Part shown: in pieces, positions 1,053 to 61,215 of the stretch | Numbering within the stretch: position 1 is the first letter of the stretch | Layout of the letters: each line of letters opens with the position of its first letter | Source: Ascidia mentula | Taxonomy: Eukaryota > Chordata > Ascidiacea > Phlebobranchia > Ascidiidae | Length of the DNA: 64,000 bases | Direction of reading: 5' to 3' | Assembly (NCBI GenBank): GCA_947561715.1 | Contig: OX387199.1 | Span: 21,581,001 to 21,645,000 of the forward strand | Translations under genes and position numbers: made by a program | The notes under the pieces: model-generated | What the model saw: only the letters and a program-made list of their open reading frames with translations | Databases searched by the model: none | Told to the model about the DNA's origin: nothing

Positions 1053-1620
1053 CTATAAACAAAGGACTGCTATTTACGGTCTTACAGTAGCACTAAAGAG
1101 GCAAAACGAAGTTATGACAGCAGTGAGGTTTTACTACCAAGATTTAAATAGATTTCGCCTGTTTGTAATCTTTCGAAACATGAACATTTGTAAAATGATT
1201 TGATTTAAATGAGTTTCATTCACAAATCTCTACAAAAAAAAACAGCGAATGATTTCATTCACAAACATCTACTAACAAAATATACCACAGCGAACTACAC
1301 TAACTATGTACTCAGTGCAAGTTCTTTTACGCTTTAAACAAACAGTTAGCTTCACATAACAGTTTTACACCAAGCGCAAGGATAGATTGTGAAGCAACGC
1401 AACTCCAGAAACAACTTCCCTATAATGAGGAAATTTTGTTTACAGTAGGCAATAAAATAATGGATATACGATCCAATCTACATCAACATATGGAAGCTCG
1501 AGCAACTCAAGTTGAATGGAATATTACTAGATATAAGTGTGGAGACAAAAGTTTAGGTCGAATATTCAACAGGCAATGGCCTTACTGCGTTTGCTTCAAG
1601 CATCAGGAAATTTGGGTTGA

Positions 1621-1626
1621 TTTATT
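1621..1626 (-). terminator. Poly(A) signal of alpha-1
   Basis: AATAAA on the minus strand, 36 bases past the stop codon of the alpha-1 gene. The matching signal of alpha-3 is at 40731..40736. Confidence 0.5.
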
Positions 1627-1661
1627 TCATTACATCTTGTTGCCTCATATCTTGCCTTGTT

Positions 1662-3132
1662 TTAAAGTTTTTCAGAGAAGTCCAGACAGAGTTGAGTAAC
1701 TTCCTCTTCCTCGCTTCCTTCAGGACTTTCGATTTCATGGAAGAGTTCTTTCTTCTTTTGTTTCAGCGCTTTATTTTCACCTCCATCAGGTTCCAGGTAA
1801 CTGTTGTAAAAAAACGCAATCGTGGAAAAAATGGTTGTTTCTGCAATTATTATCGGTTAAGATTACAAGCTGGCATCGCTTAAAATGTGAAATCTTGCCA
1901 ATGTCGTTCAAAAATAAAATGCATGAAAACGACGACGAATTGAAAATTCGGAAAACTGAACTATGAAAAACTGTTCAGGGATGCTTTTCATTAAAAAAAT
2001 TAGTTTCAATTATGTTCAACAAAAGTATTGCCCAGAAATGTGTAACTTGTAACCTTTATTATGAAATTTCTGTGAGCTGCCGGCAGATTTTGTTTATATA
2101 TTCATGTTTTGTTATACACCACTGGCGGCACTATTGATTTTGCCTTTGCTCGGCCTTATACTGTTTCCGCCTTGTTTTCTCTGTAAGGATGCACCTAGTT
2201 TGGTGCTCAACGGATGGCGTTGGCTATATATTCACTACAAAGTCTTTTCAACAGTGCCCATCTGTCTTCAGCTTACAGACTGTGTAACTAGTTTTAATTT
2301 ACACGATAAAAACACACAAATGATTTTTTTCAAGAAATAAAGTTAAGTTTAAGGACTTAGCGTATGGAGGAATTATTAAATTTTACCTTTTTAACATTTC
2401 CTTCGCTGCTTTTTCTCTTCCATAAAAACTCTTCTCACGAAACACTTTAATGAGGTCTTCTATGATATCTTCTTCGTTTTTTTTCTGTACTTTTGTTTTC
2501 TTAGTTATTTTTACTCTTAAAATACAAGCGGCGATGCAGGATGATACAGGGATGGATTGGTAGACATCATTATCAGCTACTCGTCTGGCAATCTCGAACA
2601 ACAAAAGAACTGAAAACTCGAAAAACCGATCCTCGTTGTCACTTCTGGTATTTATTGATTTTGTCATAAACTTCTCAAAATATTCACAAAATCCACGCAA
2701 TTTCACCCTATGATCTTTATGGAGAAAGTAAACGTAACTGTTGGGTTGGTCTGTAAGAGCGGAGGTAATGATTATACCATTACCAGGTTGGTCTACAGAT
2801 GGGTTGGCAAGCAAAATAACATTTCGTTTCCCACCGGATCCGCAGCGAAAGAAGATGTAGTTTCCTCTTTCGAAACGTTCTGCTTGCTGTGGGGTTTTGT
2901 TTTTGACAATTTTAATGAAGTTTTTGAGTAATCCTTTCCCTTTCAGCCCTTCACAATTATATATCTTCACAAGTTGTCGTGGAACGCAATGATTTCCTCT
3001 GTTTCCAGGATATGCCTGTTGGTATGTTGTAAGCTTCTTCACAAGATCTTTCACTTCATTGGTTTCATTTGTGATACGATTAATCATTTTAACCCATCTA
3101 AGTACTACATAACGCACGTTAAAAAGCGGCAT
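1662..3132 (-). CDS. Alpha-1: tandem-family protein, two exons
   Basis: Unrecognised family protein of 294 residues; function unknown. Exon 1 is 3132..2387 and exon 2 is 1800..1662, joined by AAAAG|gtaaaa and acaacag|TTACC, which keeps frame. Visible order: KGKGLLKNFIKIV (residues 64-76), NYIFFRCG (91-98), NVILLANP (104-111), DQPGNGIIITSAL (114-126), LRGFCEYFEKFMTKS (145-159), FFEFSVLLLFEIARRV (170-185), SIPVSSCIAA (193-202) and a closing helix to MLKR (249). Exon 2 adds SYLEPDGGENKALKQKKKEL and an acidic tail ending FSEKL. The MPLFN start is shared with alpha-3 and alpha-4. There is no signal peptide or membrane span, so a cytosolic or nuclear protein is likely. Nearly identical to alpha-3 apart from a cluster of six substitutions at 2851..2983. 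Confidence 0.8.
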
Positions 3133-5126
3133 GTTCTTCTATTGCGTCACACAAACCCCGACTGTTCAAACCTACACAAAATTGCCACCGAGTGACAGCA
3201 AAGTTAGTCTTTCAACAGATGTTATGCAGCTTTCACTGCTGCCAAACGTAAGTAACCCTAACTGCACCGATGCTTGCAGTTCGAAGACGTAAAGTTCAAA
3301 TTAAAGCAAGCTTCAACCGCCGGTAGAAAACTCAGGCGGACACCGGGAAACGCGACAGCACGACAACGGCCAATACGCAATCCCCGCCAGTAATGCAATC
3401 GAATTTGTAAATTCATTTCATCACATCGTGAGAATAACCTACGAACCAAAGCGGAGTTGGAACACTTTTCATTGTTTAACGGGATTTTTAAGAGCAAATT
3501 CGTCCCTTATAACGCAGAAAAATGACTGCCTTCCCCAAAACAAGTATAGTGCCACGCGTATACCAGTCGAAATTGCCCGGCACCGGTGAAGAGCAAACCA
3601 GGCTACAAACCATAGGTTTAATCAACTGCAAGCATTTGTTTGATCGCTTACAGCAGTCTCAACCCACCAAGTTCGGTTACCAACTGACCGAGTTAGAACA
3701 ATTGTCTAAAAAAGGCATAGTGCTTAAACCAAAAGCAACTAAGGAAATTGCATTTTTAAGTAAACACTATTTTTTTTATTAAAAAGTAAAACCCCGGGCG
3801 ACCTGTCATGTAACAATGCTTATACAACTATGCAATATGTATACAAGCGGAAAAAACATTTGTATTTGCTTCACATGTTTACTGGTTATTAATTTATTAT
3901 AGCTGAAAAACTGTATTTCGATGAACTATCACATGCCCTTACATGTTGACCTATGTCCAGCAGGCACAACTACACTTGTTTTTGTAATCCCTTACACTAT
4001 CTCTATGACCTACTGCAGCTATCACTGCTGCCAAACGTAAGTAACCCTAACTGCACCGATGCTTGCAGTTCGAAGACGTAAAGTTCAAATTAAAGCAAGC
4101 TTCAACCTCCGGTAGAAAACTCAGGCGGACACCGGGAAACGCGACACGACAACGGCCAATACGCGTATTGACATCCGGCCGCTATCAACAACTGTCGGTT
4201 AGCGCGCGTCATCGCCACGCGCAAACAGGGTTATAAATGTGGCCTATTGTGTAAGGTGCAAAACCACAAAACGTATTGTTGAGGCAAGTGTGACTTTTTT
4301 TAAATGATTGCTAGATGTACATTTCGCGGTATATTGCAAAATATCAACGCAAACCTTTGTAGAAACAATGCAACGGAAAAGTACTTCAAAACTGCACCAG
4401 ACACATAACAGTATCCCAGGCAAATACAGCCTGCCCTAATTTTGTTGCCTTTTTTGCTGACGAAAATAAATGTATGTTTGCCATAACGGCCGGACAAAGT
4501 AATCCAAAGCTGTCTCACAATAAAACGCAAAACATTTACACAAAGTTCTATGCACGATCACAACACAAAAGTTTTCCAGGAACGACCAAAGTCCTGTCTA
4601 TTCGGTTCCGTTTTGTCGTGACCTGTCGCAGTGTCATTTGCAGCTAGAAGGGACAATTCTCCACTGTACGTAGTTTGTTTTGTGGCTCTATACCTCCATC
4701 TAGCGCCAGTTTTTATGACGGCTTAAATAAAGCAAAAAAATGCAAACACACAAAAAAATCATCAGAAACGCGGTGTTTATTGTGAAATTAGTACGGAATA
4801 TTTCTTTGTGTAATACAAGCGTAAAACAACAAGAAATCAGAATGGAAATCGACACAGTTAAAAGCGCTATTATAAAATACAAGTATCTAAGTGCCCTTTA
4901 TTAATACATTGAACTTGGTGTTAAACGAAACACAGTTTACATCGCAAAAGCTAACACATGGACATTTACGGATTGTAAAATTAGAAAAAATAACATATTG
5001 CACATTGAAATAACAATATGTGATAAATGTAAATAAGTATTATCCTTGCAATCGCGAAGGTTTAAACTTATGTTAACAGATGGTTTGTGGATATTCACAA
5101 ACTGTTTTGTCGTCCAGTTATGTACA
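3133..5126. repeat. Intergenic block between alpha-1 and beta-1, with internal direct repeat
   Basis: No gene supported. About 130 bases at 3228..3358 recur at 4018..4148 with few changes. The part at 3450..3690 belongs to a recurrent intergenic block also seen near 8840, 11430, 35400, 36730, 42560, 47200 and 57990. The part at 4180..5000 is the standard DNA downstream of beta-type genes, recurring near 9320, 12640, 24220, 28070, 31920 and 43230. The plus-strand frame at 3522..3782 overlaps the recurrent block and is not kept in its other copies, so I do not call it a gene. Confidence 0.75.
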
Positions 5127-6631
5127 TCATTGTTTAATATCGGTTGCAGCTGGATTGAAGAGTCGTTTCATTAGTTTTTCTTTTTCTTCCTTCGTACCTC
5201 CTTCCTCGTAAAACCTATTTTAACCCAACCAAAAAGTTATAAATATAACGCGTTTTAAATATATTTGTATATCCAGTCCAATGTCTCAAATTATGATGGG
5301 CAGCGTAGACTCAGTTACACTACGATGTGCATTTTGTAGAAACGATCGATTTGAAAGCAAATCCTGAAAACATTTTTACTTGTAACGTTCTTTGCTTTTA
5401 CTTGTGTAAAACGATTTAGGGATCTGTAGAAAAAACTTCAAGGTTATTGGGGGCCAGCATTTATTTTCTATATGCGCTCTGATAAATAAGAGTTAGTTTC
5501 AGTTATTCAGGAGATATATGACTCCTTCCACACGACCATTTGCACAGGCGAAAATCTTTTTTACACCAACCTTAGAGAACATGTCACGAATGACTACAGG
5601 AAGCAGTCTGTGTGACCGACGGATTTGTCTTTTTTCGCATCAACATTTGCCGGAAACTCGAAACGGAGTAGGTTTTCTTACTGTTGAGTTTTGTTGCGAT
5701 TTTTAATTTTTTTGCTATTCCTTTAGACAGAAACCGGGAATGCCAATAGGCACAATTATTATTTCTATTAAAAACAAAGACCTTATATTGGCGCTTATCG
5801 CCTATCACCCCCTTTCGAGTTTCCGGACAACACTAACCTCTTCAGGATGTTTCTTGCGGCATTTTCCCTCATATCCAAATCCCCTTGAAACACTTTTTCC
5901 AGCTGCCTAAATACATCTAACTCATTTTCATTTCTCTCTGACATGGAAACCCTTAACATAGAAACGGTGATGCAGGATGACACAGGGATGGATTGGTGGA
6001 CATCACCATCAGCAAGTCGTCTGGCAATCTCAAACAACAAGAAAACAGAGATCTCGAAAAATCTACCACTAAAATTTCTTTGGTTTTTGATGTAAACTGA
6101 TTTTGTCATAAACTTTTGAAAGTAATACGGAAAACCTTGAAACTCGTATGTTTTTGGCGGTTGAAGCAAGTATTTAAATGTGTTTGGTTGGTTTGTGAGG
6201 GAAGAAGTCATCATTAAACCATTCCCAGGTTGATTGCAAGTTGGATTTGCGAGCAAGATAATATCTCGATTCTTACCGGGTCCACAACGGAAGAAGAAGT
6301 AATTTCGGGCTTTATACATTTCTCTGTGTTGAACAATATCAATGAACTTGTACAGCAACTTTTGACCCTTGACCACCTCAAAGTTGTAACTTGCCACTCG
6401 TTTACCAGGAGCCAGGATATTCTTTTCATCGCAATATTTTTCCAAATTTGTCAAGAGGTGATGGTTGGTTGGCATGACAACTTGTGGAAAATAGCTTCGA
6501 AATATTTTGTCGTACTTTCTAAACTCATCATAACTTTCTGTCTTGGTCCCAATGTTTCGTTTCCACGAGACTCGCCCAGGCCATATTTTACGAGACCCCA
6601 AAACGCCGTAACATTTAATTACTCTGGCCAT
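5127..6631 (-). CDS. Beta-1: tandem-family protein, two exons
   Basis: Family protein of 293 residues; function unknown. Exon 1 is 6631..5838 and exon 2 is 5214..5127. The junction CTGAAGAG|gttagt to aaaatag|GTTTTAC keeps frame. I chose MARVIK as the start because beta-4 has a stop just upstream of the same Met, although here the frame stays open to 6649. Order: YDEFRKYDKIFRSYF (34-48), VKGQKLLYKFIDIV (87-100), NYFFFRCG (110-117), DIILLANP (123-130), NQPGNGLMMTSSL (133-145), FFEISVFLLFEIARRLADGD (191-210) and SIPVSSC (214-220). Exon 2 gives FYEEGGTKEEKEKLMKRLFN and ends ATDIKQ. Beta copies carry about 27 extra N-terminal residues compared with gamma and epsilon. The 623-base intron is well conserved among beta copies. 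Confidence 0.8.
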
Positions 6632-8580
6632 CCAATTCCTTTTAACCAACTAGCAACAAATGTTTCGACTAAAAAATTCTGTGGTTAAAATAAAGTTAAT
6701 ATTTCGTGCCAAGTCTACCTAGTTGGGAACCCAACCGATCGCTGAATGGCCGAAAGGAAATTTGGGGCTTCCTCGTCTAACAGCCATCCCACAATCTAGT
6801 AGTTTAGTTTAAGAACTCTTTACCGATATTTTGTGATATCTGATCTTTCGCTTGCAATATATATTGTGGAAAACACACAAACTTGTCCTTATATCGACCC
6901 TATTGTCCGAACTTGCCCGGTTGCTGCTACAGTATCATGATGGTGTTTTGTTGTGACAAACAACAACCACGTTACCTCAACGAAGCCACAGAAGTTTAAA
7001 CAAAAACCCGCTAATGTAAACACCAGGAAACTACTTACTCCTTCACAGGAGTTTGTAAACTCAAATATCAACACTAGTATTCTCATAAAATTTGGTAAAT
7101 TGTTCACCACGAACTAGCAGGCGCACCATGTTGCACCACTACTACATCATGCTCATTAATAGGAGTTCAAAATTTGAACATGTGGTCTTTACTTCACGTG
7201 AAAATTTTGCTTTTTTAGTGAGAAAACACTTATATTCCCATCGATATTAACACCAGGTAGATGCGCCAAATTTCAGGCCATGACATATTCGCAAACTGTC
7301 GTAGATCAACGTTTTAATTTTAACGTTTGGAACAACATTCATTGAGCTGCTGACATTAAACGGAGTTTCGACCTGCCAGGTCTCATCAGTGCAGCTGGTG
7401 AATGAAGTTGGTCATGCCGACAAACTAACTAGAAAGAAGCTATTCCACTGTGGTGAATTTACATTCGCCGTCGTTAGGAACCAAACTACAGGTACGACAT
7501 ACCGGGAACGAACCACAGAGCACACAATGGGCAAGTAACCGCTTGAAAACCGATAGTGTTGTCGCCTATTGTCACCAAAACAAAGAGCTTATATGTCGAA
7601 ACAGTGGCCGTCTGTATGCAGCTCACAGAAATCATATCATAAGCTCCATTTGCTCATATATATGCGACAACGTTTCTATACCACTGACCTGAGCGGACTG
7701 TAAATATTTTCATATGCTTCAGCCTTATGCCTCCATTGCACGCCATTTTATGGTAATCACTGCCCATCAATCTATTGTTGAGTTGCTTCCGCCTTGGTTA
7801 ACTTTCTGTTAACTCTGCATTCTCAGGTCTTCTACCTTTGGTATTAATATCAGTGATTATTATGCCATTGTACTTTTACGATTGCGATCCCTCTGCTAAA
7901 GTTTGTGATAATTTTATTCATTCAAATGTTTAACACCGGATTTCATTTAGACAAATTGTGCGACCGGTTTTAGAGGTGATGTCACATACAGCAAAAAGAA
8001 AACAGTCGTGTTGCATGTCAAAAATAAACAACCAACTAACGAACTAACTGATGAAAATCCATAATTTGTGCCCTCCGTTACCTGGACAACGTGTATCTGA
8101 CGTAATGCACCACATTCTTGCGCAATTTATCCAAAGCGAAGGAGTATGTGATAGGGCAATGGCGCTGAAAAGGAGAATAGCTGCTGAAAAGATGTAAGAC
8201 ACAAGGAATAATCCACGTGAACAATTAAGTCTACTGGAGAACATACATTGCTAACAATACACATACTCTAACCATACAAAAACCTACTATGGGGAAAACT
8301 AGTACACAGCCAACATAATCTCAATTTTGGGCAAATCAGTTCCAATTTACTCATTCTTATGTTTCTACCCAAAATAACTCCTTGTTTTAACGAGCTTCGG
8401 ATTCTGTGATGTTTTGGTTTTCTCATCGGATAACACTGTACATTAATGCCATATAAATATTCTTGATCGGGCTTATGCTGTTCATGTGTCGTTGATTACC
8501 TTCTGGGAATTCTGGCGTCTCAACTTTTTGTAAATTCATTACTTACGAGATGCACCAACATTCAACATATTAAGGCACCA
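6632..8580. repeat. Gene-free flank upstream of beta-1
   Basis: No gene supported. 6710..7130 matches 54310..54790 (upstream of the epsilon gene) and, in part, 46075..46340 and 34765..34870. 7690..7810 matches the start of the 3.85-kb tandem units near 24040, 27900 and 31755. 8237..8580 matches 54809..55165. Nothing recognisable is seen in 7150..7690 or 7810..8230. Confidence 0.7.
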
Positions 8581-9823
8581 GAAACGGGATGTTTTTCTAT
8601 TTCGTCACGCAAACCCCGACTGTTGAAACCTGCACAGAATTGCCACAGCAAAGTTAGTCTTTCAACAGATGTTATGTTTGCATTACCTGAAAGACATACT
8701 CAATGATACGTATTATGGAGCAATAAACATTGCGAATCGAGACTGCCAATCCCCGCCAGTAATGCCATCAAATTTGTTCATTTATTTCGTCACTTCGTGC
8801 GATTAACCTACGAACCAAAGCGGAGTTGGAACACATTTTAAATTTTTAACGAGATTTTTATGAGCAAATTCGGAACGTTTAACGCCAACAAACGACTGCG
8901 TTTCCCGGGACAGGAAGTGACACGACCAGACTAGTCCACATTTGCCCGTAACCGATAAAGAGCAAACCCAGATACAAACGATAGGTTTTATTAACTGCAA
9001 GCATTTGTTTGATCGCATACAGCAGTGTCAACCCACCAAGTTCGGTTACCAACTGACTGAGTCACAAAAACATTAGTCTGAAAATGTCAAAGTGCTTAAC
9101 TTAAAACAACTGAGGCAAATCGCATTTTTAAGTAAACACTATTTTCTTTTGTCAATAATTAACATAGACAGCATACAACTAAAATCCCTGGGGAGCTGTC
9201 ATGTAACAATGGTGATATAGCCATGCAATATGTATTCAAGCTGAAAAAAAACATTTTTTTCAAATATTTACTGGTTATTAATTTGTTATAGCTGAAAAAA
9301 ATGTGCCTCGCTGCAACACTGTATGTCACTCTTATATGATGGTTATTTTGTACTCTATCTGCACTTTAGTGTGGATAAATTTGGCCTATTGTGTAAGTTG
9401 CAAAGCCATGTTAAACGAATTGTTGAGGCAAATATGACTTATTTTGATTTATTACTAGTTGTTCATTTCGCCGCAAAGTATATTTCAAATGGTCAACGTA
9501 AACCTCACCCTTTGTAGAAACAATGCGACGGAAAAGTAATTTAAGACTGCACCAGACACACAACATAATCCCAGGCAAACAAAACCTGTCTTACTTTTGT
9601 TGCCTTTTCTCACCTAACGAAGATAAATGCATGTTTGCTAGTACGGCTGGAGAAAATAATCCATAGATTTCTGACATTAAAACGAAAAACTTTTAAACAA
9701 AGTTCTATGCACGATCGCAACACAAAAGCTTTCCAGGAACAAGCAAAGTCCTGTCGACTTTCTGAAAACGTCTGTTCGGTTCCGTTTTGTCGTGACCTGT
9801 CCCAGTGTCATTTGTAGCTAGAA

Positions 9824-10551
9824 TTATTGCAACAACTACAACAATGACAGAGAAAAGAGAAACAAAACTCGAGCTCAAGAAACATACACTAATACACAAA
9901 TCAATATTAAATTACAAAGTATTCCATTTCAATTTAAATTCATTCACTTTATTAGTTCTTAATGCAGTTTTTTTTTTCTGCTGCTCTAACTTGTTGTACT
10001 TGCCGTCGAAACATAGTAAAACAGGGTTGCACTTTGGCCACTTTACATTTGTAAACACAAAATCTTGCTATTAGTAAAATTAAATTGATTAGTTTTTCCC
10101 GATTTGTCCTTCCATTTTCTGTACCAAAAAGTTTAAGTTGATCGGTGATAACAATTTTTTCCATTAATCTAGCCATGCACTAACATTTTCCCAAAAATTT
10201 GCAACATTAACACACATACACAATATATGATAAATTGCTTCCGTTTCGAGTCCACAAAAAACACATTCACCCGTGTCAACCAGTCCGAAGCCAAATAAAA
10301 CGTCGTTCATTACCAATGCCCTCAAATTTACTTTAATTTGAAAAGATCTTAATTTCGTTTCCAGGGTGCATTTAAAATTATTTATATATAACGAGTGCCA
10401 TTGGGCTTCCGTTAGGATCAATTTGGTGGTGATTGCCCATTTATTTTGCTGCTTTCTTGGGGGTTTTCTAATTTTTGAAGCATAATATTCGTATACTTGT
10501 TTTGCGGAATAAAACTTTTCATTTACATAGTCTCTAAGGCGGGTTAAAATA
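9824..10551 (-). mobile_element. 5'-truncated LINE fragment
   Basis: The minus strand encodes a typical C-terminal end of a LINE reverse transcriptase ORF: ETKLRSFQIKVNLRALVMND, then a zinc-finger-like CVFCGLETEAIYHILCMC and FW. The limits are clear because other copies of the host sequence run directly CTAGAAGGGAC, whereas here 728 bases are inserted with AGAA on each side (9820..9823 and 10552..10555), a 4-bp target duplication. Only the 3' end of the element is present. Its 3' tail shows short TTG-type repeats and no long poly(A). The open frame of about 166 codons (10664..10164) starts in flanking DNA, so it is not a gene of its own. Confidence 0.75.
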
Positions 10552-11093
10552 AGAAGGGACAATTCTCCACTGTTCGTGGTATGTTTTGTGGCTCTATACC
10601 TCCATCTTGCGCCAGTTTTTATGACGCAAAAAAAAAAAAACGAAACGCGGTGTTTATTGTGCAATTAGTACATAATAATTCTTTGTATAATACCTGCATG
10701 AAACAACAAAAAAATCACAATGAAAATCGACACTGTTAAAAGCGGAATTATAAAGTAAGTATCTAAGTGCCGTTTATTAATACATTGAACTTAGTGTAAA
10801 ACGAAACACAGTTTACATCGCAAAAGCTAACACATGGACATTTACGGATTGTGAAATTACCGACAACGTATTGCACATTCAAATAACATTATGCGATAAA
10901 TGTAAACAACGCAGTAATATTTCATGCAATGGCATGATTGGCAGGATCGCCCCACTGCGCAGGTCCGCCCCACTGCGCAGGTCCTTGCTTGGCGATCACA
11001 GTTATCGTATCGCGATCATTAGGTTTGCAGGCTTGGCAGCCCAGGCATTGCAGCCTAGTTGGATCAGCCACTTTTTCCTGACAAGTGGGAGCA

Positions 11094-11168
11094 AGCTCCC
11101 GGTGAGGTTTGAACTCGCGACCCTGGGGTAACCAGGCCCAACGCTCTACCAACTGATCTACAGGAGCT
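11094..11168 (-). other. tRNA-like head of SINE (not a functional tRNA)
   Basis: The 75 bases fold as a tRNA-like form: a 7-bp acceptor stem AGCTCCT/GGGAGCT with one G-T pair, a box A-like TAGATCAGTTGG, and a box B-like GAGTTCAAACC. The anticodon arm is irregular, with a loop of about nine bases, and the T stem has a mismatch. I read it as a pol III promoter head rather than a decoding tRNA. Confidence 0.55.
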
Positions 11169-11299
11169 CAGTGGTTTCGGGGGGTATACGGTGGTAGAGA
11201 TCCCCTACGTATATGTGAAGGTTGCCTGGCAAGTTGTGCGCTTGCGCACCAGTGTATCTTGACCACAATATACCCCGTGAAACCACTGAGCTCCTGTAG
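11158..11299. repeat. Inverted repeat with 37-bp arms at the tRNA-like head
   Basis: 11158..11194 (starting CTACAGGAGCTCAGTGG) is matched in inverted orientation by 11263..11299 (ending CCACTGAGCTCCTGTAG) with a few mismatches; a 68-base spacer lies between. The left arm overlaps the 5' end of the tRNA-like head, so the head's first bases and the DNA upstream are present twice, in opposite directions. Confidence 0.75.
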
Positions 11300-12365
11300 T
11301 GAAAAGTGAAATTGCGTAACAGCCCGACCCCCAAATCCTTCGAATATGTAAACTCATGCCGGCACGTCGTGTGGTCGACGTCATTATGCAAATAACTTTC
11401 GAAACAAAGCGAAGTTGGGACACTTAAACGGATCCAGTCCTTTTTATTGTCCGTGATATTTACGAGAAAATTCTTAGCCCTTTTACCGTCGACTAACGAC
11501 AGCGTAATCCCGAACAGGAAATGGCAAGGAAGTCCCAACTGGCCCGGTAACGGTAAAGAGCTCGACAGTTTGAAAGGATTCTCGGCACCTAGCGTCTTCT
11601 GCCAAAACTGCCAAATAACATTCCTAGAAAAGATGTTCGATAGGTTAGAGTGTAGCATTGCGGACAAAATGGATGAAAGCCACTTTCTCTCAGCGACTTA
11701 TGTAAAGATATTTTCCATAACTTGTCGCTCACTGTACCCTCCAGTTCGAGACCCACGTTGTTAAATAACAGGCTCTGTTATAAAACCCATTGTGCTATGT
11801 ACAAAGGTTTAACAGCCATTCAACAAAGGCAAGTACAATTTTTGATAGGACCGACAATTTTGCGCAGGAAGTTTTTTAAAAAGTTTTTTTTCCTTTGCCA
11901 TGAAAATGTCAAACTCCCATTTTAGAAAAAGATTTTTGGATGAATGCATTTTATTTTATTTCAAAGAAAGTAATGAAAAACTACTTTAGCAAATTAAACT
12001 GTATATTCATTAAGTTCATGTACACTTAAACAAACAGCTTTCTTCCCGTAACAGTGCTACAACATTATTTCTAATTGCAACGTAACTTAGCTATTACATA
12101 AATTTTGTTACACTGATTAAGATACAATTCATCTTATATACATAAGTAGATCGAAGCTTGTGTTACGCATATGTAACGGAACATATCAGAACGGACACAA
12201 AGATACACGTCTAATATTTAGAGGGCAAAGGCTTTGGTGCGTTTGATGACACACGAAAAATATATTCTGTTTGTAATTATGTTGAGTACACAGCTTCAAT
12301 GGTTTTTATAAATTTGGGTTCATTTTATTCATCCAGGTTTGCATCTCGTTGCTTCAGATCTTGTC

Positions 12366-12501
12366 TTAAAGCAGTTTTGCGATGTCTCGAGAAAGTTGAA
12401 TAATTTCTCCGTCAACACTGCCTTCTTCTTCGATTTCATCGAAGAGTTCTTTCTTCTTTTGTTCCAGTGCTGCACTTTTTCCTCCCCCATTTTTCAGATA
12501 A
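12366..12501 (-). pseudogene. Orphan alpha-type last exon
   Basis: A complete alpha-type 3' exon with acceptor (gaaacaacag|TTATC) and stop. It reads SYLKNGGGKSAALEQKKKEL and then an acidic tail ending AKLL. No core exon lies upstream: within about 150 bases the sequence changes to beta-type downstream DNA. It is the remnant of a gene whose 5' exon was removed by recombination. Confidence 0.7.
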
Positions 12502-13320
12502 CTGTTGTTTCAAAACAAGGTTGTTAAGCGAAAGGTCGTTTAGATATTCATAAACCGCGAAGTAATGAAAATGACGATAACTATGTGGGCGAAATCCTTT
12601 GTAAGAAACCAGCTGACTTTACATTAATGCACAAATAAAACTTGTGGAAACAAAAAAAACAAAAAACTTTTGAACGAAGTTCTATGCACGATCACAACGC
12701 AAAAGTTTTCAAGGAACAAGCAAAGTCCTTTCGAGTTTCTGAAAAAGTCTATTCGGTTTCGTTTGGTCGTGACCTGTCACAGTGTCATTTGCAGCTAGAA
12801 AAGAGACTGGTCACGAATCCCGATCAGGTTTTCTTCTTGGTATATGGGTCGGGCGTTTGAATTCTCCACAGTATACGTGGTATGTTATTTGCTCTATACC
12901 TCCATCTAGCGCCAGTTTTTATGACGCCTTAAATAAAGCACAAAAAATGCAAACACACAGCAATATAAGCAGAAATAAAGTATTTATTGTGAAATTAGTA
13001 CGGAATAATTCTTTGTATAATACCTGCGTGAAACAACAAGAAATCACAATGAAAATCGACACAGTTAAAAGCGCTATTATAAAGTACAAGTAGCTAAGTG
13101 CCCTTCAATACATTGAACTTAGTGTAAAACGAAACACAGTTTACATCGCAAAAGCTGGACATTTACGAATTGTGAAATTGCAAACAACATATTGCACATT
13201 GAAATAACATTATGCGATAAATGTAAATAAGTATTATCCTTGCAATCGCGAAGGTTTAAACTTATGTTCACAGATGGTTTGTGGATATTCACAAACTGTT
13301 TTGTCGTTCAGTTATGTACA

Positions 13321-13408
13321 TCATTGTTTAACATCGGTTGCAGCTGGATTGAAGAGTCGTTTCATTAGTTTTTCTTTTTCTTCCTTCGTACCTCCTTCCA
13401 CGTAAAAC
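13321..13408 (-). pseudogene. Orphan beta-type last exon
   Basis: A whole beta-type 3' exon (aaaatag|GTTTTAC, FYVEGGTKEEKEKLMKRLFN, ending ATDVKQ and a stop). About 200 bases of the beta intron follow upstream, then homology ends abruptly near 13607 and different DNA begins. The core exon is absent, so this is a gene remnant cut within its intron. Confidence 0.75.
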
Positions 13409-32690: not shown

Positions 32691-32847
32691 TGTGAAATTG
32701 CAGACAACGTATTGCACATTCAAATAACATTATGCGATAAATGTAAATAAGTATTATCCTTGCAATCGCGAAAGTTTGAACATATGTCAACAGATGGTTT
32801 GTGGATATTCACAAACTGTTTTGTTGTTCAGTTATGTACATCATTGT

Positions 32848-50582: not shown

Positions 50583-52483
50583 TCCCTTAAGCGTAGTTGG
50601 GGGCGGAAAACGTTGAATGGCTAAAACTTTGTCAGAAAGTGGCTGAGCACCGTTGCAATCAATTCGATGTCCCAGAAAATCAATTTGCGTTTTTCCGAAA
50701 ACGCATTTATTCACGTTAAGGACAAGGCCATTGTCTGCAAGTCGTTGAAATAGTTGTTTGAGATGTGTGCGGTGAACCTTTAACGAGGAACTCGCAACCA
50801 GTATATCATCTAGGTAAACAAAGGTAAAATCCATTGATTGACAAACAGAATCCATAAGTCTTTGAAAAGCTTGAGCAGCGTTCTTTAATCCAAAAGGCAT
50901 GCGAAGGAACTCAAATAAACCAAAGGGGGTGATGACGGCTGTCTTTGGAATGTCGGTTTTAGCAACTGGCACCTGGTGGTATCCGCGCACCAAATCAATT
51001 TTTGAAAACACTTTTGCTCCATCAAGCCGAGAACTAAAGTCCTGAATGTGCGGTATATTGTAACGGTCTGGTATTGTGGCAGCATTCAGACGGCGATAAT
51101 CACCACACGGTCGCCAATCACCGGATGATTTCGGCACCATATGTAATGGTGATGCCCATGGACTGGAAGATCTGCGAATAATACCCAGTTGCAACATTTT
51201 AGAAAACTCGCGTTTTGCTATTTGCAATTTTTCTGGCGACAAGCGTCGTGCTTTTGCGTGAACTGGTGGACCGTCAGTTGGAATATAGTGTTCTACCTGA
51301 TGTTTTGGCGTTGCTGCGGAGAACTTGGGAGTAGTTATGGAAGGAAACTGCGTTAGCAATCGTGCGTAAATGTTGTTACTTGTCGAAAGTGCGTTGAGTT
51401 GCATTGGTGAGTGATTGGTGCAATGAAGTGGTGCACTCGCAAAGGAACGAGCGTTTAACAAGCATTTGTGCCTTAGGTCGACAAGCAAGGAATTTGCGCG
51501 CAGGAAATCTGCTCCGAGAAGCGGCCTGGGCACGTGGGCTAAAACAAACTTCCAAGAAAACTTGCCGGCTACTAAATCGAGCGAAATTGTTTTTGTTCCA
51601 AATGTTTTAATGGCGCTCCCATTAGCGGCTATAAGCTTGAAGTCGTTGCATTGACGCAAGCGTTCCCTACTGGAAGCCGGATAAACGCTAACTTCTGCTC
51701 CAGTGTCGACCAAAAATTGTTGTTGTGAATTACTGTCCCATAGAAAAAACAAATTCTTGTGAACGCCGGCCGCTGCTGCAGTTAACAACGGCCGGCCTTT
51801 AAGTTTTCCTGATAAGCACAAGGTTGCTGGCATTTAAGGGCACGGTCGCCAAAGCGTTGGTGATAAAAACAGAAACCGTTCTTACGTGATTGCTGCGCAG
51901 GTCTTGCTGAAGGCATCTCACGCTTGCGGACTTTTGAAACAAAAAATTGCTCGCTGTTTCTTGCCTTCCAAAGTACGTCGGCACGTTGTGCTAATTGCCT
52001 TGGTTCGACCAACGTCTCTTTTGTCAACACGAGCCGAATTTCTTCTGGCAAGGTTCGAAGAAAAATGTAGTGAAACAAAAAACATGGCTTATGACCGGCC
52101 ATCAGGGACAACATTTCATCCATGAGCTGCGATGGTGATCGGTCTCCAAGCTCGGTAATGTTAAGCAATCGTGCAGCTCTTTCATACTCCGTAAGTCCAA
52201 ATGTTCTAAGCAAGCGTTCCTTGATTGCTGCGTATTTGTTCTGCTCAGGCGGACTTTCAAGTAGATCCAAAAGACGGCTTGCTGTTAGTTGGTCCAATGC
52301 TGACACCACATAATAATACTGCGTTCTATCGCAAGATATTTTGCGTAGCGTAAATTGTGCTTCGGTTTGTTGAAACCACACTCGGGGTTGTTCAGTCCAG
52401 AACGTGGGTAGTTTCAAAGAAACAGCAGTGTGTAGTACTTCTTCTTGATCCTGCATTGTCCAAGAAATATCGTTTCTTGACGC

Positions 52484-52495
52484 TCGGGGTCACCA
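52484..52495 (-). other. Primer-binding site, tRNA-Trp type
   Basis: TGGTGACCCCGA lies three bases inside the LTR end. CsRn1-clade elements are known to prime with tRNA-Trp, whose 3' end this fits from memory. Confidence 0.6.
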
Positions 52496-52498
52496 AAA

Positions 52499-52651
52499 TG
52501 TGGCGTGCTTGCTCTTTATTCGTAGTCAATAGAATGGTGCGTACATGGCGTGACACATGACACGTGAGAGAATCGCACGAAAAAGGCAAACACGCACCGA
52601 AACCAACGCAACCCGCGACGGCACATCCTTACAACATATTATGTCGCTACA
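52499..52651 (-). repeat. 5' LTR of the Ty3/gypsy fossil
   Basis: About 153 bases, starting TGTAGCG and ending CCACA, with a poly(A) signal AATAAA (52520..52515) near its end. There is no second LTR in the window, so the limits rest on the TG...CA ends and the adjoining PBS. Confidence 0.6.
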
Positions 52652-52729
52652 ATATGTATATATATGGATATGTGGAACTGCAATTCATAAGAACAAACAG
52701 AATATATTCGAAACTGGTTTCACGAAAGT

Positions 52730-53815
52730 TTAATGTTTTCTCACTTTAAGATTTGTTGATGTTTCGTCAACAAGTTTTCGCTTTCTTCCAACTCTTCTAT
52801 CAGTGAACATTTTAGTATTATTGGCAAAAGCTGGATTAAAGAGTTGTTTCATCAGTTGTTCTTTTTCTTCCTTTACACATCTTTCCTCTTTAAACCTATT
52901 TTAAACGAACACATTTTACAAACACATTAGAATATACAAGCGTGCAGAGCTTTCTTTGTGTGTTATTAATAAAATACAACAGACTAAGTGCAAATGAAAT
53001 TGTTTCTGTTAAAAGTTGAGTTGAAGGGTATTTTTTAAAACTAACCTTTCCAGCATTGTTCTTGCTGCTTCTTCTCTTTCTTCAAATTCCATTCGAAAAA
53101 TGTAAATCAGATCTTCGATTATATCCTCTTCCCATTCTTCCTAATCCTCATCAGTCCTCTTCCTGGCGATTCTCAATAGACAAGCGGCGATGCAGGATGA
53201 CACAGGAATGGAATCAAGCTTTTTCTTCATATCTGGACTATTTTCATTGTCTGGAACAAGTCGTCTGGCAATCCCGAACAAGAAGAGAACAGAAAGCTCG
53301 AAGAAACGGCCCTCTTTGCGTTTATTGCGGCCTTCGGTGTTGACTGATTCTGTCATAAACTTCTGAAAGTAATAACAAAACCCACGCAATTTGTGGACGT
53401 GATCATCATTCATAAAGTAGCTGTAACCGTTGGGTTGTTCTGTAAGAGCAAAGGTAATTATCAACCCGTTCCCAGGTTGGTTATTAGTTGGATTGGCGAG
53501 CAAGATTATATCTCGATCCCCAGCATCAGATCCGCAGCGAAAGAAGAAATAATTTCCTTTTTTATAGTTGGATCTGTTTTTCACAACTTCAATGAAAGTG
53601 TAAAGTAAGTCTCGTCCCTTGAGACCTGTAAGTTTGTATCGAGGCATCAAATCTTTCGATGGCAAACAATGTTCATATTTTTCACAATGTCTGTTTAAGT
53701 TTCTTAGCAAAATTTCATTGATCAACGTTGATGGATCAGGTTCAATTCCTGGTCTAGTTAGTTGATCGCAGAAATTTTTGTCAAACTCCGCAAACTTCTG
53801 ATATTCATCGGACAT
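52730..53815 (-). CDS. Epsilon: tandem-family gene with one in-frame stop
   Basis: Core exon 53815..53046 and last exon 52895..52730, with usual splice sites (GAAAG|gttag and aaaatag|GTTTAAAG). Order: YQKFAEFDKNFCDQL (5-19), LKGRDLLYTFIEVV (65-78), NYFFFRCG (88-95), DIILLANP (102-109), NQPGNGLIITFAL (112-124), LRGFCYYFQKFMTESV (143-158), FFELSVLFLFGIARRL (171-186; Gly replaces the usual Glu), a ten-residue longer loop, then SIPVSSCIAA (202-211). One in-frame stop falls after residue 224, within the acidic linker before the closing helix. The remainder of the exon and the last exon stay open and would add about 87 residues, ending in a basic RRVGRKRK tail that looks like a nuclear localisation signal. 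Either a truncated protein or an early pseudogene. Confidence 0.65.
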
Positions 53816-56427
53816 GGCAGCCGTTGAAGTAATTTCAGATTCTCTATTTTAAACCTGAGCTGAATTATTGAAACAAATAATTTCCTTTTTGTAATCGTTA
53901 CTATTTATGACCAATTATAATAACAATTTGTACAAACGTTTAAAAAAACACAATGAGTCCCTAAGGTTCTCGGAAGTTATCAGACTCAGGTCTATACTCA
54001 CTGTACGCTTGATATCATATCTGGCTTCAAATTATTATGGCGTCAAACTAATATGCCACTTTTATGCGCAATAAATGGCCACTTCCTGTATATTGTTTGT
54101 CTGTGCGTCCCGGTATGCGTAAGTGCAACAGTCTCCAGTGGCACGCATGGGGCAGACAATGCAAAACATAAAGGAGAAAGTTTTTTTTTTAAATAATGTA
54201 ACATTTTCCCTTATCCTACTATGAGGAAAACCAGTAGACAGCCATCAGAATCTCAATTTTGGGCAAATCAGTTCGAATTTACTTATTCTTATATTTCCAC
54301 CAAATCTGCCTCGTTAAGAACCCAACCGATCGCCGATTGGCCTAAAGGAAATCTGTGTCTTCTCGTCTACCAGCCAGCCCAGTGCCACAGTCACCAGCTG
54401 TACTGATGAGATCTTACAAGTAGAAATTGCAGCTCTTAATCTAGTAGTTCAGTTTAAGAACTCTTTACCGATATTTTGTGGTATCTGATCTTTCGCTTGA
54501 CACACAAACTTGTCCTTATATCGACCCTGTTGTCCGAAATTGCCCGGTTGCTGCTACAATATCATCATTGTGTTTTGTTGTGACACCAACCACATTACCT
54601 CAACGAAGCCACAGAAGTTTAAACAAAAACCCGCTAATGTAAACACCAGGAAACTACTTACTCCTTCACAGGAGTTTGTTAACTCAAATATCAACACTAG
54701 TATTCTCATAAAATTTGGTAAATTGTTCACCACGAACTAGCAGGCGCTCCATGTTGCACCACTACTACATCATGCATATTAATATAAGTTTAAAATTTTA
54801 CCAGTGCACTGGAGAACATACATTGCTAACAATACACATACTCTAACTACACAAAACTTACTATGGGGAAAACTAGTACACAGCAAACAGAATCTCAATT
54901 TTGGGCAAATCAGTTCCAATTTACTCATTCTTATGTTTCTACCCAAAATAACTCCTTGTTTTAACGAGCTTCGGATTCTGTGATGTTTTTGATTTTCTCA
55001 TCGGACAACACTGTGCATTAATGCCATATAAATATTCTTGATCGGGCTTATGCTGTTCATGTGTCGTTGATCACCTTCTGGGAATTCTGGCGTCACAACT
55101 TTTTGTAAATTCATTACTTACAAGATGCACCAACATTCAACATATTAAGGCACCAATGCCAGTTTCCTAACGCAATAATATTCCGTCAGGGATAATCCGT
55201 GCGTATGTTAACCATGACTTCAACTAAAACTTGCAACAAAATGACGTAATGATATTTTTGTGCAGCAACAAGTACAAAATCTTGCACTGGCTTGTCGGGA
55301 AAAAGTAGCTTTGTTTTTTTTTAGCACGAGCTTCGGGCTCTAATTCGATTTATTATGGAACGTAATAAAAAACGCTAACCATCATGAAATGCAAACAAGT
55401 AGGCTTAATATTGGTGGTAGGCCAAGGATTAAACTCTCCGCAAAACACGTAAACTCGATCAAAGTGCAACGAAATTCTCATAACGGTGATCACGAGCTTG
55501 TGGCCAGAATTACTTGCGTTAACTTCTATGGACCGTCCTGATGATACCCCCGAATATTATCAAGTGATTTAACCACGTGATTCGAGTTTGTATGCAAACA
55601 ACTCACGAACCAAAACAAACTAATGACGACCCAGTATATGATGTTGTTTATCTGAGTTGGTGTCGGGCAATAGCCCACCCTTTTTACTTTCCAAAACCTT
55701 CGCACGGTTAATCTACAGCTAACGTTGGTATTGGTTCCGCCCCCTGTAGCCGCAGTCGTCACGTTTGTCGTGCCAGTCTCTGCAAGCCCAGGTCTGTAAA
55801 CAGAAAACCTAACCAGGAATACCAGGCTAATATTTGCGAACGCTCGACTCAAACATTAGCGACAATGCAGTTTGTAATTAGACACACAGTCTTAACCAAG
55901 CAAAATCAAAGCACGTCAAAACACATTATTTTCAGGGTTAAAGCCCAGAGTGTTTAATAAGACGTAAAGAACGTTTAACAACATTTATAATTATATGGAA
56001 GAAAAATACCAGAATGCAATCATTGCGCTGCAGACATTAAAGCAGTACGCCAGCCTGCAAGATTTCATCATGCAGTGCGGGTGGTGACCGTATAGGGGTG
56101 GACTAGATGTTAAATTGCAACTGCAAATAGAAACATTGTGTACTGCTGTCTGCAACTCAATGAATACAACGCAAAATTTGAGAAAAAGTAATTGATTTGA
56201 AAGCGTTTTCTTCCAAAGTAACTCAAAACTCAAATTATAATAGCAAACCAAACTAACACACTTATAAACCAACAGAAATATACAACAATTTTACTCCGGG
56301 CGTAGTATTCGGTAGCTAAGCAACACAATGCTAACCAGAAATTTGCAATTAGGCTGATTGCGTTTGTGATATAAAATAATAAATTTTCAGATTTTCCAAA
56401 TGCCAGCACTCAAAATCTTAGCATGTT
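53816..56427. repeat. Gene-free between alpha-4 and epsilon
   Basis: 54310..54790 matches 6710..7130, 54809..55165 matches 8237..8580, and 55165..56427 matches 13613..14880. Nothing recognisable in 53816..54300. Confidence 0.7.
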
Positions 56428-57641
56428 TTACATTTTTTTGTCGAAATCTTTGGAGAGTTCATCAATTTCGCTCTCCCAACTATCATCTAGTTCCTCTTCT
56501 TCATCCCTGTTGAAAAGTTCTTTCTTCGTTTGTTTCAGCGCTTCATTTTCACCTCCTCCGGTTTCCAGGTGACTATTGTAATCAATCAAGATTATCAATG
56601 AAATGCGTTTAGTTTTGCGTTAATCAAGTCCCTAATTCCAACACTTAATGTTACATATCAACACATGAATTGTAACTTAGTTTAAGGAAATTAAAAACAA
56701 CGATAAAGAAAGCAATTGTACCTATTCAACATTCTGTTTGCAGCCTTTTTTCTTTCATCAAGACTTCCTTGAAAAACTTTCACCAACCCTTTTATCAATT
56801 CTTCCTCGAGTTCCTGTGCCGCGCTCAAAATACAAGCGGCAATGCAGGATGACACAGGAATGGAATGGTAGCCATCACCGTCGGCAAGTCGTCTGGCAAT
56901 CTCGAATAACAAAAGAACTGACAACTCGAAATAACGACCCTCGTTGCTTCTGCAGTCAGGGGTATCGACTGATTCTGTCATAAACTTCTCAAAGTACTTG
57001 CAGAACCCACGCAATCGGTAGGCATAATTGCCAAGAAAGTAGCTGTAACTGTTGGGTTGGTTTGTAAGAGCTGAGGTAATGATTATTCCGTTTCCAGGTT
57101 GATCATGAGTTGGGTTGGCGAGCAAAATGATACCTCGATCTCCAGCATTAGATCCGCAGCGAAGGAAGAAGTAATTTCCTGTTTGAAACTTTTCCCTGTT
57201 TTGGACAATTTCAATGAAAATTTTTAGTAAATCCTGGCCTTTCCACGCTCTGAAACTTCCCATAAGCCATTGTGGAAGACACTGGATGCCCATATCTCTA
57301 AGGTAATTCTCCAATATTTTTTGAAGCTTTTTCATGAGCTCATCCTCTTCTTCTTCCTCTTCTTCTTCCTCTTCTTCTTCTCCTGTTTCCTCTTCCTCGT
57401 CATCTTTATCATCTTTCTTTTTACCTTGCCCACTGGTACCCTCTTGCTTTTTCTTTTCTTCTTCGTTTTCTTTTATCTTTTTCTGACCCATCAGCTTCTC
57501 CCCTCTCCTTTTATTTCGCTCTTCCTCTTTCTCTTCTTCTTTTTCTCCGTCTTCTTCTCTCGTAAGTGTTTCAACCAGACGATTATGCAATTCAACCAAC
57601 GTTATTACTCCTCCACCCAAAATCGCGTTAAACAGCGGCAT
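56428..57641 (-). CDS. Alpha-4: tandem-family protein with long acidic segment
   Basis: Intact family gene of 354 residues; the full-length twin of alpha-2. Exon 1 is 57641..56722 and exon 2 is 56572..56428 (SHLETGGGENEALKQTKKEL, ending DFDKKM). The start MPLFNAIL matches the MPLFN of alpha-1 and alpha-3; another Met lies 11 codons upstream. Residues of about 27-110 are an extreme Glu/Lys/Asp-rich segment, probably coiled coil or disordered, with a run of Glu codons forming a CTT/CCT trinucleotide repeat (57345..57385, plus-strand view). The family core follows: AWKGQDLLKIFIEIV, NYFFLRCG, GIILLANP, DQPGNGIIITSAL, LRGFCKYFEKFMTESV, YFELSVLLLFEIARRLADGD and SIPVSSCIAA. Function unknown. Confidence 0.8.
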
Positions 57642-59455
57642 GTTTTTCTGCAAATGCCTGTCTGAAGTTTGCACAGAGCTATCAAGTTCAATTATTCAAT
57701 CCATCGCGAATACATGCCATTACCCGCCCTTTCAAGCCAACACAGGTTTAGTTCAAGGTACAAACCTTGATATTTGCGTTACCATTGCGCCCACTCTGAC
57801 ATTTGATGCCTCTGAATAAATTTACTTCAACATCGTGCAATCACTCAAACTACTATGATATGAGAATCACTCAAACAGAAGTTAAAACAATTCAAATATA
57901 CTCGTTCATTTTTTGATTATCGGGATTTGTTTAAAGCTTTTCATGTTTTAAGAAGGCAATTATGTGGCTAGTAAATCAACAGCGGGCATTGTTATTGACC
58001 GACATTATGCGGCGAACTAACAGGCGCGTCTGTGCCAGTCCCAACTCGCCGAGTTTGGTAAAGAACAAGCCCTGTTATTTAAACCATAGGTTAATATTTG
58101 CGAAGACTCAACGGCTCAGCCCCAGGATGAAATATCCATGTAATATTCTGCTGCAAGCTCAAACTTGCCTTTGTTTTACTGTTTCTGGCAACAGACCGGT
58201 ATTCATTGGAAAACAGCACTTATGTTATTTTAGGTTATTTTTTTGTTAAATACTGCGTTAATTGCTACCACATACAGGTACTATAATGTCTTGGAACTTT
58301 GCCTCATTAGAAAATGCAGAAATTTAAGTAAACCGAATTAATTCAAGCCAAGAAATATTATTTGAACGGTTCAAGTAATTGCCGATTGTTTACTATGCAA
58401 TGATATTAAGTAAAACATCGCCAAATGTACAACGCAAAATAAACCCCCTCCCAGGGCTCAGCGTACATTAGTGTTGCCCAAAAATCTTTCATACTGAAGG
58501 TTTATGCAATTGTATCTGCCAACCCCTGTGTTAACGCACCCTTTACTTTATGATTACAACATTAAAACCAAATATACTTTGATAGCACTAACACCATCAA
58601 CAAGCCTGAAAAAACAACAACATCTAAATATAAAGCCTATCCAGTTGCAGTTTGCTGTAATAGGCCATCTATTGCAACTTGGAGCTAATAAAGAGGTGTT
58701 GCAAAGTCAGGTTTTTATAGCTCCGTAGCGCACCCTGGGGCCTGTGTTTTTTAGGTGTTAATATTAACGTAACAATCCATAGTTGCCCAAATTCTAAAAG
58801 AGAAAATCAGCAACACCATGACCAAAAAAAATCAACGTGGATGTGCCGTCAAAAATTTATTAAATAATTCATAAACTCAAGAAATAATTTAACACAGAAA
58901 AAAACGACAAACAATTTCTCAAATTTGAAATAAAACACGAAAATAAAGTAGTTACATTTTAGTCTTTAGTTTGTGAAAAGTACTGGGGCCAGGAACGCAA
59001 AAAAACACCCGAAAACTAAAGAAATAATCAACCGATTTCTTGCATGCTTACACGACTAAAACTTTATGCTATTTTGGATAGTGGTTCGACAGCAAACTTT
59101 CCTCAGCAACTCATGGAAGACGATGCCAACGCTGCAGGCAAATTACGGTCTTGAAATTAAAGCGACACCTTTCCGTGTTTCAAAAATCATTTCTGGTCTT
59201 TAGAATTTAGCGAGATTTTACCACAACCAAAAGTTTTAAAACAGTGGTCCTTATTTTTCTCTGCGCTAAAAATATATACAAGCTGAAATATTGTAATTTA
59301 CAGGATTCACAAAGACTAAAAACTCGGATACGAGTCAACTACTCGTGTACATGTTCAACGACAACAAAACGATAAAAAGATAAATTTCGTTTAAATCCAG
59401 GCATTGCTTGAGAGGGTGCACAGACTGATTTCTGTAGTCATTCTGGACATTTACT
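57642..59455. repeat. Gene-free between delta-2 and alpha-4
   Basis: 58462..59455 matches 15886..16699. 57990..58100 resembles the recurrent intergenic block. 57642..58460 is the part missing upstream of alpha-2. A degraded retropepsin-like fragment lies at about 59060..59190. No gene supported. Confidence 0.65.
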
Positions 59456-61215
59456 TTAGTAAAACACATCACGTGTTTTCGGAGAATTTGTGTCGCCTAA
59501 TTTTTGTGTTTTGCTGCTCGTCGCTTTAGAATCGCAACTTTTGCTGACAAGCTGCATTTTGTTGTTAAGATTATTGACGTTTCGTGTATTTGGGAAGATT
59601 TTCCGTGGGGTTAATTTTAGGCTTTGACCGATACTTGCTGACTGCTTCGAATCTTTACTTTGGTTTGGACGAAAATTTTGAGGAATGTCTTCATGCAGTT
59701 TACTTTCCTCTCTGGAACTTTGCTCCTCTTCATAAAAAGGATTGAAGAGATGCTTCATCTTCTTTTGCAGTTTTTCCCTACTTTGTTCCTTCGTCTTCGC
59801 TGACTCTTTACCATCGTCCTCAGCTTTGTAATAACTGTTCCAACAATTGACACAGGTAAAAAAAAAGCTTTTTTTGGGAATGTCAACTTTTACAGCAAAA
59901 TTCAATGGGCGTTAAAAAGCCACTCATCTGGTTAAATCTTACTAATCTTACAATAATACATAGCAATGCTGGACAAAAGATGTCTTTGTACATCTTAAAA
60001 ATGTAGGCAGTTGAAGTTCATTTAATTAATACAAAGGGCAATGCTGTTGTTGTGAGAATGATCCAATACTTTGGTACAATCAACACAAACGTATTGTTTG
60101 TAATTCCGTGAACGAATGTTGAAAGCTTTGCAACCGAATTGCTGATTTTTCAACATTTTAACAATATGTTAGTTACCATAGGTTAATTTCCAATCAATTA
60201 AAGATAAATTGCTACAATACCTTATTAACAATGCTTGTGCTGCATATTCTCTTTCATCGAAATCCCCTCGAAAAATGTTAATCAACTGTTCCATTAAATT
60301 CTGCGCCATTAAATCCAACAGGCTTCTTCTTAAAGAACTAACGCTAAATAAAACGAAAGGTTGTGAACATTATTTATAAAAAATATTATTTATAACTAAT
60401 AAAATACATTGAAAACGTTTCCAAAAAAATACATTGAAAACGTTTTCAAAAACCTTTGCAAATTAGTTTGCTATTTACAAAGTACTTAGTATGAAAGGTA
60501 TTGAAATTCACCTTTGCATCAGTTTAATTTCATCTTTTTTGCAGGTATATGGCTGTTCCAATATTTTGGCCATTTCGTCTTTCGTATCCTCAATATTTCT
60601 CTTTCCCATTTCATCTTTTAATACACAAGCGGCGATGCAGGATGACACAGGAATTGACTTGTATGCATCGTCATCAAATAATCGTCTGGCAAGCTCGAAG
60701 ACGAAGTGAACAGAGAGCTCAAAGAAAAGACCTTCATAATCACTGGGACCTTTCGTGTTGACTGACTCGGTCATATATCTTTGAAAGTAGTGCAAAAATC
60801 CAATTAAATTATCGCCATGTTCGTCGATGAAGCTGTCAAAACTGTTCGGTTTGTCGTTTAAAGCAGAGGTTATGATTACTCCGTTTCCAGGTTCAGCTTC
60901 GGTTGGTTTTGCGAGCAAGATAACATCTCGATTCTCATCGGATCCACAACGAAAGAAGAAGTAATTTCCTGTTCTGAAACTACGGTTTTGTACAATTTCA
61001 ATCATTGTGTAAAGCAGGTTTTGTCCATTACTTTCGTCAAAATGGAAACTAGCCGCTAATTTAAATTTTTTGGGAGGAGAACTAAGATGCTTTTTGAGGT
61101 TATTCAGCAAGTTTTCATTGATTTGTAGACACGAAAGAAGTTGGTCCCGGAATTCGTTGTCATTGTCCTTAAGTTTCGCGTATTCTTTTTCTTCAAAGCG
61201 ATTTAGGTTTGTCAT
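59456..61215 (-). CDS. Delta-2: tandem-family protein, three exons
   Basis: Intact family gene of 401 residues; function unknown. Exons are 61215..60512, 60343..60221 and 59834..59456 (CAAAG|gtgaat, tttag|CGTTAG; ATAAG|gtattg, ggaacag|TTATTAC), all in frame. Start MTNLNRFEEK; the frame is open further up but has no ATG. Order: EFRDQLLSCL (21-30), SNGQNLLYTMIEIV (62-75), NYFFFRCG (84-91), DVILLAKP (97-104), EPGNGVIITSAL (108-119), YFQRYMTESV (143-152), FFELSVHFVFELARRL (164-179), SIPVSSCIAACVL (187-199). The 41-residue middle exon (LMEQLINIFRGDFDEREYAA) carries the closing helix that other subtypes encode in exon 1. The last exon gives KLQKKMKHLFNPFYEEEQSS and a tail of about 90 residues rich in Ser, Lys and Asn. 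Confidence 0.8.

What the first reader, a model, noticed from the sequence alone, without database searches (positions are those of the whole stretch)
1662..61215. Thirteen-copy, one-strand array of an unrecognised two- or three-exon gene family
All copies lie on the minus strand, share a core with near-invariant motifs (NYFFFRCG, PGNG..ITSAL, SIPVSSC) and carry a separately encoded charged C-terminal helix ending near LFNP. Seven look whole, one has a single in-frame stop, five are broken or truncated, and there are two orphan last exons. I know no described domain with this set of motifs. Such birth-and-death clusters are typical of recognition or defence genes; that role is inference.
Basis: partly seen in the sequence, partly recalled or inferred. 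Interest (0 to 1): 0.8.

Follow-up and report, generated by a model that had tools for sequence, protein, structure and literature searches.

The report
Orphan gene family in one-strand array
A stretch of animal-type DNA carries thirteen copies, eight of them apparently intact, of a gene for a soluble, probably intracellular protein that matches no family in the libraries searched; the cluster grew by repeated duplication and copy-to-copy exchange, but its function (possibly defence) is unproven.

Summary
Thirteen minus-strand copies of one gene family span 1662-61215, with the motifs, splice structure and two orphan last exons described. I count eight apparently intact copies, not seven, plus one with a single stop and four truncated or deleted. 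All introns checked are GT-AG and phase 2. Between-copy dN/dS is mostly 0.2-0.5, so these are real protein-coding genes. The array is a mosaic: block 1-21 kb is duplicated as 39-64 kb at 91-97% identity, the middle is a 3.85-kb repeat, and one gene (c2) is an exon/intron recombinant.

The products are soluble, with no transmembrane span and no hydrophobic signal-like segment. They match nothing in Pfam, NCBIfam, PHROGs, PADLOC, the Protein Data Bank, viral contigs, prokaryote genomes, phages or plasmids. Two AlphaFold models were too poor to assign a fold. A ribosome-inactivating-protein (RIP) resemblance appeared in one model only, with non-significant scores. The RIP Pfam domain and the conserved tryptophan are both missing, so membership is not met.

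Best reading: a lineage-restricted family under birth and death, with a strongly constrained core and faster-changing loops and C-terminal helices, plausibly intracellular defence or conflict proteins. The role is inference. Eukaryotic protein databases, the species and expression could not be checked.

The parts
1662..1800 (-). c1 last exon (KKKELFH)
2387..3132 (-). c1 core exon, intact
5127..5214 (-). c2 last exon (RLFNP)
5838..6631 (-). c2 core exon, intact; exon resembles c6/c7, intron resembles c8/c10 (recombinant)
12369..12500 (-). orphan last exon, c1/c3 type
13321..13408 (-). orphan last exon, c2 type
14881..15025 (-). c3 last exon (KKKDLFN)
15178..15885 (-). c3 core exon, 5' end lost (homology to c12 stops at 15885)
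16700..17078 (-). c4 last exon
17456..17578 (-). c4 middle exon (duplicated helix exon)
17744..18257 (-). c4 core exon with internal deletion near 18032; broken
21761..21947 (-). c5 last exon (DLFNP)
22335..23011 (-). c5 core exon, intact
25129..25216 (-). c6 last exon
25696..26426 (-). c6 core exon, 5' truncated, in-frame stop
28991..29078 (-). c7 last exon
29546..30276 (-). c7 core exon, same truncation and stop as c6 (tandem copy of a dead gene)
32848..32932 (-). c8 last exon; 4-bp insertion alters last residues
33557..34353 (-). c8 core exon, intact
40772..40904 (-). c9 last exon
41491..42236 (-). c9 core exon, intact (duplicate of c1)
44140..44227 (-). c10 last exon (RLFNP)
44854..45665 (-). 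c10 core exon, intact
52730..52895 (-). c11 last exon (QLFNP)
53046..53815 (-). c11 core exon with one in-frame stop (about 53141); also lost the otherwise invariant S of ITSAL and E of FEIARR
56428..56572 (-). c12 last exon
56722..57641 (-). c12 core exon, intact, with long acidic N-terminal tract
59456..59834 (-). c13 last exon (HLFNP plus long tail)
60221..60343 (-). c13 middle exon: duplicated C-terminal helix motif, phase 2-2
60512..61215 (-). c13 core exon, intact
1..20983 (.). segmental duplication block A
38992..64000 (.). segmental duplication block B, aligned pieces 91-97% identical to A, gene content differs between them
23993..33114 (.). 3.85-kb tandem repeat (c6, c7 and the 3' part of c8)

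Best explanation
A single-strand, birth-and-death cluster of a lineage-restricted animal-type gene family. Shown: the genes encode soluble 290-400 aa proteins with a constrained core (about 150 aa, predicted alpha/beta) followed by a predicted helical tail whose last helix lies on its own exon. They multiplied by tandem and segmental duplication and by exchange of exons and introns between copies; copies die and leave orphan exons. Inferred: the proteins act inside the cell. The invariant polar residues (NY, RCG, PGNG, TS, ExxRR, SIPVSSC) line one binding or catalytic pocket, while the N-terminus, the loop before RFFE and the charged C-terminal helices vary and set partner or target specificity, with the LFNP helix as a docking tail. 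The most likely biological role is intracellular defence or another genetic conflict with parasites. Probability that the architecture and evolution are as described: about 0.95. Probability of the defence role: about 0.3.
For: 12 cores plus 1 deleted copy on one strand. Eight spliced models with GT-AG, phase-2 introns and no hydrophobic span. 41 invariant core columns. dN/dS mostly 0.2-0.5 between subfamilies but 0.76-0.97 within c2/c8/c10, with no synonymous change against 12 codon-level nonsynonymous changes in the N-terminus of c8 v c10. Duplication blocks and tandem repeat. c2 is an exon/intron recombinant (Fisher p = 7e-5). No match to any known family.
Against: No functional evidence at all: no expression, no species, no fold. 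Duplication with pseudogenes is also typical of neutral expansion, olfactory, reproductive or detoxification families. dN/dS near 1 in c8/c10 may be relaxed constraint. Eukaryotic protein databases were not available, so 'restricted' means only 'absent from what could be searched'.
Confidence: 0.4

Rival explanations
1. Neutral or dosage-driven lineage-specific expansion of an ordinary soluble protein family (metabolic, reproductive or developmental) that merely lacks a Pfam model; no conflict role.
For: Purifying selection across subfamilies. c6 and c7 show that even a dead copy was duplicated, so duplication here is mechanical. No secretion or membrane features.
Against: Eight intact copies in several divergent subfamilies (core about 45-60% identical) and fast change of loops and tails within the c2/c8/c10 group.
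Confidence: 0.35
2. A divergent ribosome-inactivating-protein-like (rRNA N-glycosidase) fold, working inside the cell: the ExxR of FEIARR would correspond to the RIP catalytic helix.
For: The ExxR helix and the order strand-helix-strands-helices. The otherwise near-invariant E is lost in the stop-bearing copy c11.
Against: The model is poor (pLDDT 45). Foldseek E-values of 0.3-0.9 are not significant, and cysteine-protease folds score as well. The second model shows no RIP. No RIP in Pfam or PDB sequence searches at E up to 10. No invariant tryptophan.
Confidence: 0.05
3. The apparent array is inflated by assembly: blocks A and B are two haplotypes joined in tandem.
For: Parts of A and B differ by only 1-5%, within the heterozygosity known for some marine invertebrates (own knowledge).
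Against: The blocks differ in gene content and spacing: c11 and the gypsy insertion only in B, orphan exons only in A, c4 deleted and c13 intact; other parts differ by 7-9%. Even if true, at least nine distinct copies remain (c1-c8 and c11).
Confidence: 0.12
4. The family is the coding part of a mobile element.
For: High copy number with transposon remnants nearby.
Against: Copies carry conserved introns, share one strand, and duplicate together with long flanks; no coding similarity to transposases or polymerases.
Confidence: 0.03

Closest known systems
Lineage-specific birth-and-death gene clusters of invertebrates, such as the AIG/GIMAP arrays of Biomphalaria (PMC7053062; title and abstract seen)
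   Same: Tandem copies with repeated expansion and loss, of uncertain role
   Different: Those have a known GTPase domain; this core has none known
Botryllus allorecognition locus protein BHF (PMC12065747)
   Different: BHF is described as disordered, with N-terminal cysteines and membrane-associated; the family here has a conserved structured-looking core and a multi-copy array. Sequences not compared
Metazoan ribosome-inactivating proteins of mosquitoes and whiteflies (PMC5431988, PMC7511414)
   Same: ExxR in a helix; weak fold-search mention of RIPs
   Different: Mosquito RIPs are intronless, carry Pfam PF00161 and canonical active-site residues; this family has introns, no PF00161 match and no conserved tryptophan

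Membership tests
Ribosome-inactivating protein (PF00161) | Match to the RIP Pfam domain | tested here: not met
   No PF00161 for any of the 12 members or the family consensus at E up to 10
Ribosome-inactivating protein (PF00161) | Active-site set Tyr, Tyr, Glu, Arg, Trp (own knowledge) | tested here: not met
   E-x-x-R present; no invariant Trp among the conserved columns
Ribosome-inactivating protein (PF00161) | RIP fold | tested here: inconclusive
   Models of pLDDT 45 and 40; Foldseek not significant
Cell-surface allorecognition or immune receptor | Signal peptide and transmembrane segment or known ectodomain | tested here: not met
   Highest 19-residue mean hydropathy in any intact copy 1.35; N-termini of most copies charged; no domain found. 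Hydropathy only; no dedicated signal-peptide predictor was run
Birth-and-death multigene cluster | Tandem paralogues with intact genes, pseudogenes and recombination between copies | tested here: met
Immune or defence gene family | Induction by or activity against pathogens | not testable with these tools
   No expression data or genome held

The most novel reading that the evidence does not exclude
A previously undescribed protein fold or enzyme family acting inside animal cells in genetic conflict, with a fixed catalytic or ligand pocket and paralogue-specific loops and exon-encoded helical tails.
Probability: 0.15. Interest if true: 0.75.

Novelty: new member of a known kind. Interest (0 to 1): 0.42.

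Why it matters
The organisation (duplicating array, dead copies, orphan exons, recombinants) is of a well-known kind, but the protein core, with 41 invariant columns, has no match in any library available here. If it is an intracellular conflict family, it offers a clean natural series for mapping which loops diversify around a fixed core. If not, it is still a compact case of exon/intron exchange between paralogues.

Tried and rejected
Searches that found nothing: Pfam, NCBIfam, PHROGs, PADLOC; PDB sequences; viral and prokaryote contigs with two motif sets; phages and plasmids; papers containing the motif. Two AlphaFold jobs gave poor models. Foldseek gave nothing significant in PDB or BFVD. 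RIP idea: kept only as a weak rival. Cysteine protease (CE clan) idea: rejected, no invariant His. ADP-ribosyltransferase idea: rejected, no ExE strand after the TS motif. Positive selection across c8/c10: not claimed, because recombination and relaxed constraint explain part of it (exon dS 0.054 against 0.014 in the intron). A mitochondrial presequence in c2/c8/c10 was considered (8 K/R, 1 acidic residue in the first 32 of c2) but the hydrophobic moment is low. The Pfam Importin_rep_6 match of c3 (E 4.7e-5) falls in its low-complexity acidic tract and was discarded. A scan for bacterial-type promoters upstream of c10 is not informative for an animal gene.

Full report
What is there. A motif scan and tblastn find twelve full cores and one deleted core of one gene family, all on the minus strand, from 61215 (ATG of c13) down to 1662 (stop of c1). 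I number them c1 to c13 by position. The core exon ends at an AG|GT donor in phase 2 in every intact copy. The last exon begins after an AG acceptor and carries a charged helix ending in LFNP or a relative of it. The eight spliced models read through: c1 294, c2 293, c5 287, c8 293, c9 292, c10 299, c12 354 and c13 401 aa (with the c13 middle exon corrected to 60221-60343, one codon less than printed there). c13 and the dead c4 have a middle exon that repeats the helix motif of the core exon's end, also phase 2-2. Two orphan last exons lie at 12369-12500 and 13321-13408.

State of the copies. c11 has one in-frame stop and has also lost two otherwise near-invariant residues, S of ITSAL and E of FEIARR. 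c6 and c7 share a 5' truncation and the same stop and lie in a 3.85-kb tandem repeat, so a dead gene was duplicated. c3 has lost its 5' end and c4 has an internal deletion. That gives eight whole, one stop, four broken.

Is it coding? Yes. Between subfamilies dN/dS is mostly 0.2-0.5 and 41 core columns are invariant. Within the c2/c8/c10 group dN/dS is 0.76-0.97. The changes lie outside most of the invariant motifs, in the N-terminus, the loop before RFFE and the C-terminal helix. In the N-terminus c8 and c10 differ by 12 codon-level nonsynonymous changes and no synonymous one. This suggests diversification but is weak on its own, because recombination and relaxed constraint also act.

How the array grew. 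Block 1-20983 matches 38992-64000 in pieces of 91-97% identity whose offset shifts from 39.0 to 43.0 kb; individual features within it differ by about 1-17%. Gene content differs between the blocks. c2 is a recombinant: its core exon differs from c7 at 4.2% of sites and from c10 at 8.7%, but its intron differs from c7 at 11.9% and from c10 at 5.6% (Fisher p = 7e-5). An amino-acid tree pairs c1/c9, c3/c12, c6/c7 and c8/c10. Joined haplotypes cannot be wholly excluded without reads.

What the protein is. It has no transmembrane span and no hydrophobic signal-like segment by hydropathy (highest 19-residue mean 1.35), so an intracellular location is the likeliest inference. No library search recognised it. 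The window's genome is not held and no eukaryotic protein database was available, so 'orphan' is limited to what was searched. Two AlphaFold jobs on the family's own alignments gave mean pLDDT 45 and 40. Both show a helix, two or three strands, then five helices. Foldseek found nothing significant.

The RIP lead. The ExxR in FEIARR and four RIP entries among the top 20 hits of model 1 (E 0.34-0.89) made me consider a ribosome-inactivating fold. Against it: model 2 shows no RIP, sequence searches show none at E up to 10, there is no invariant tryptophan, and cysteine-protease folds score as well in the same list. Known mosquito RIPs are intronless, and PF00161 was a criterion for them (PMC5431988). 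I do not file the family there.

Function. The architecture and evolution are shown; the role is inferred. A fixed polar core with faster-changing loops and tails, in an array with constant birth, death and exchange, fits an intracellular conflict or defence family best (about 0.3), with ordinary lineage-specific expansion as likely or nearly so.

Noticed in passing
window 50529-52489, minus strand: Gypsy-type retroelement remnant: reverse transcriptase (PF00078, E 4e-34), aspartic protease traces and a DUF7041 gag-like part, in block B between c10 and c11.
   Followed up: partly
window 62356-62775 and 19371-19736, plus strand: Ribosomal protein S28e-like fragment (PF01200, E 5e-6 for the first) in each duplication block; its tail differs from normal S28e as I know it, so probably a retrocopy duplicated with the block.
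   Followed up: no
window 11093-11168, minus strand: tRNA-Thr (GGT anticodon) prediction in a repeat-rich stretch; an unusual anticodon for a eukaryotic tRNA-Thr gene, probably a tRNA-derived SINE or pseudogene.
   Followed up: no
window 10164-10664, minus strand: LINE remnant with a zf-RVT match (E 7.5e-5, below Pfam cut-off).
   Followed up: no
window 56722-57641, N-terminal half of c12: Long acidic/lysine-rich low-complexity tract in c12 (and its remnant in c3), absent from other subfamilies.
   Followed up: no
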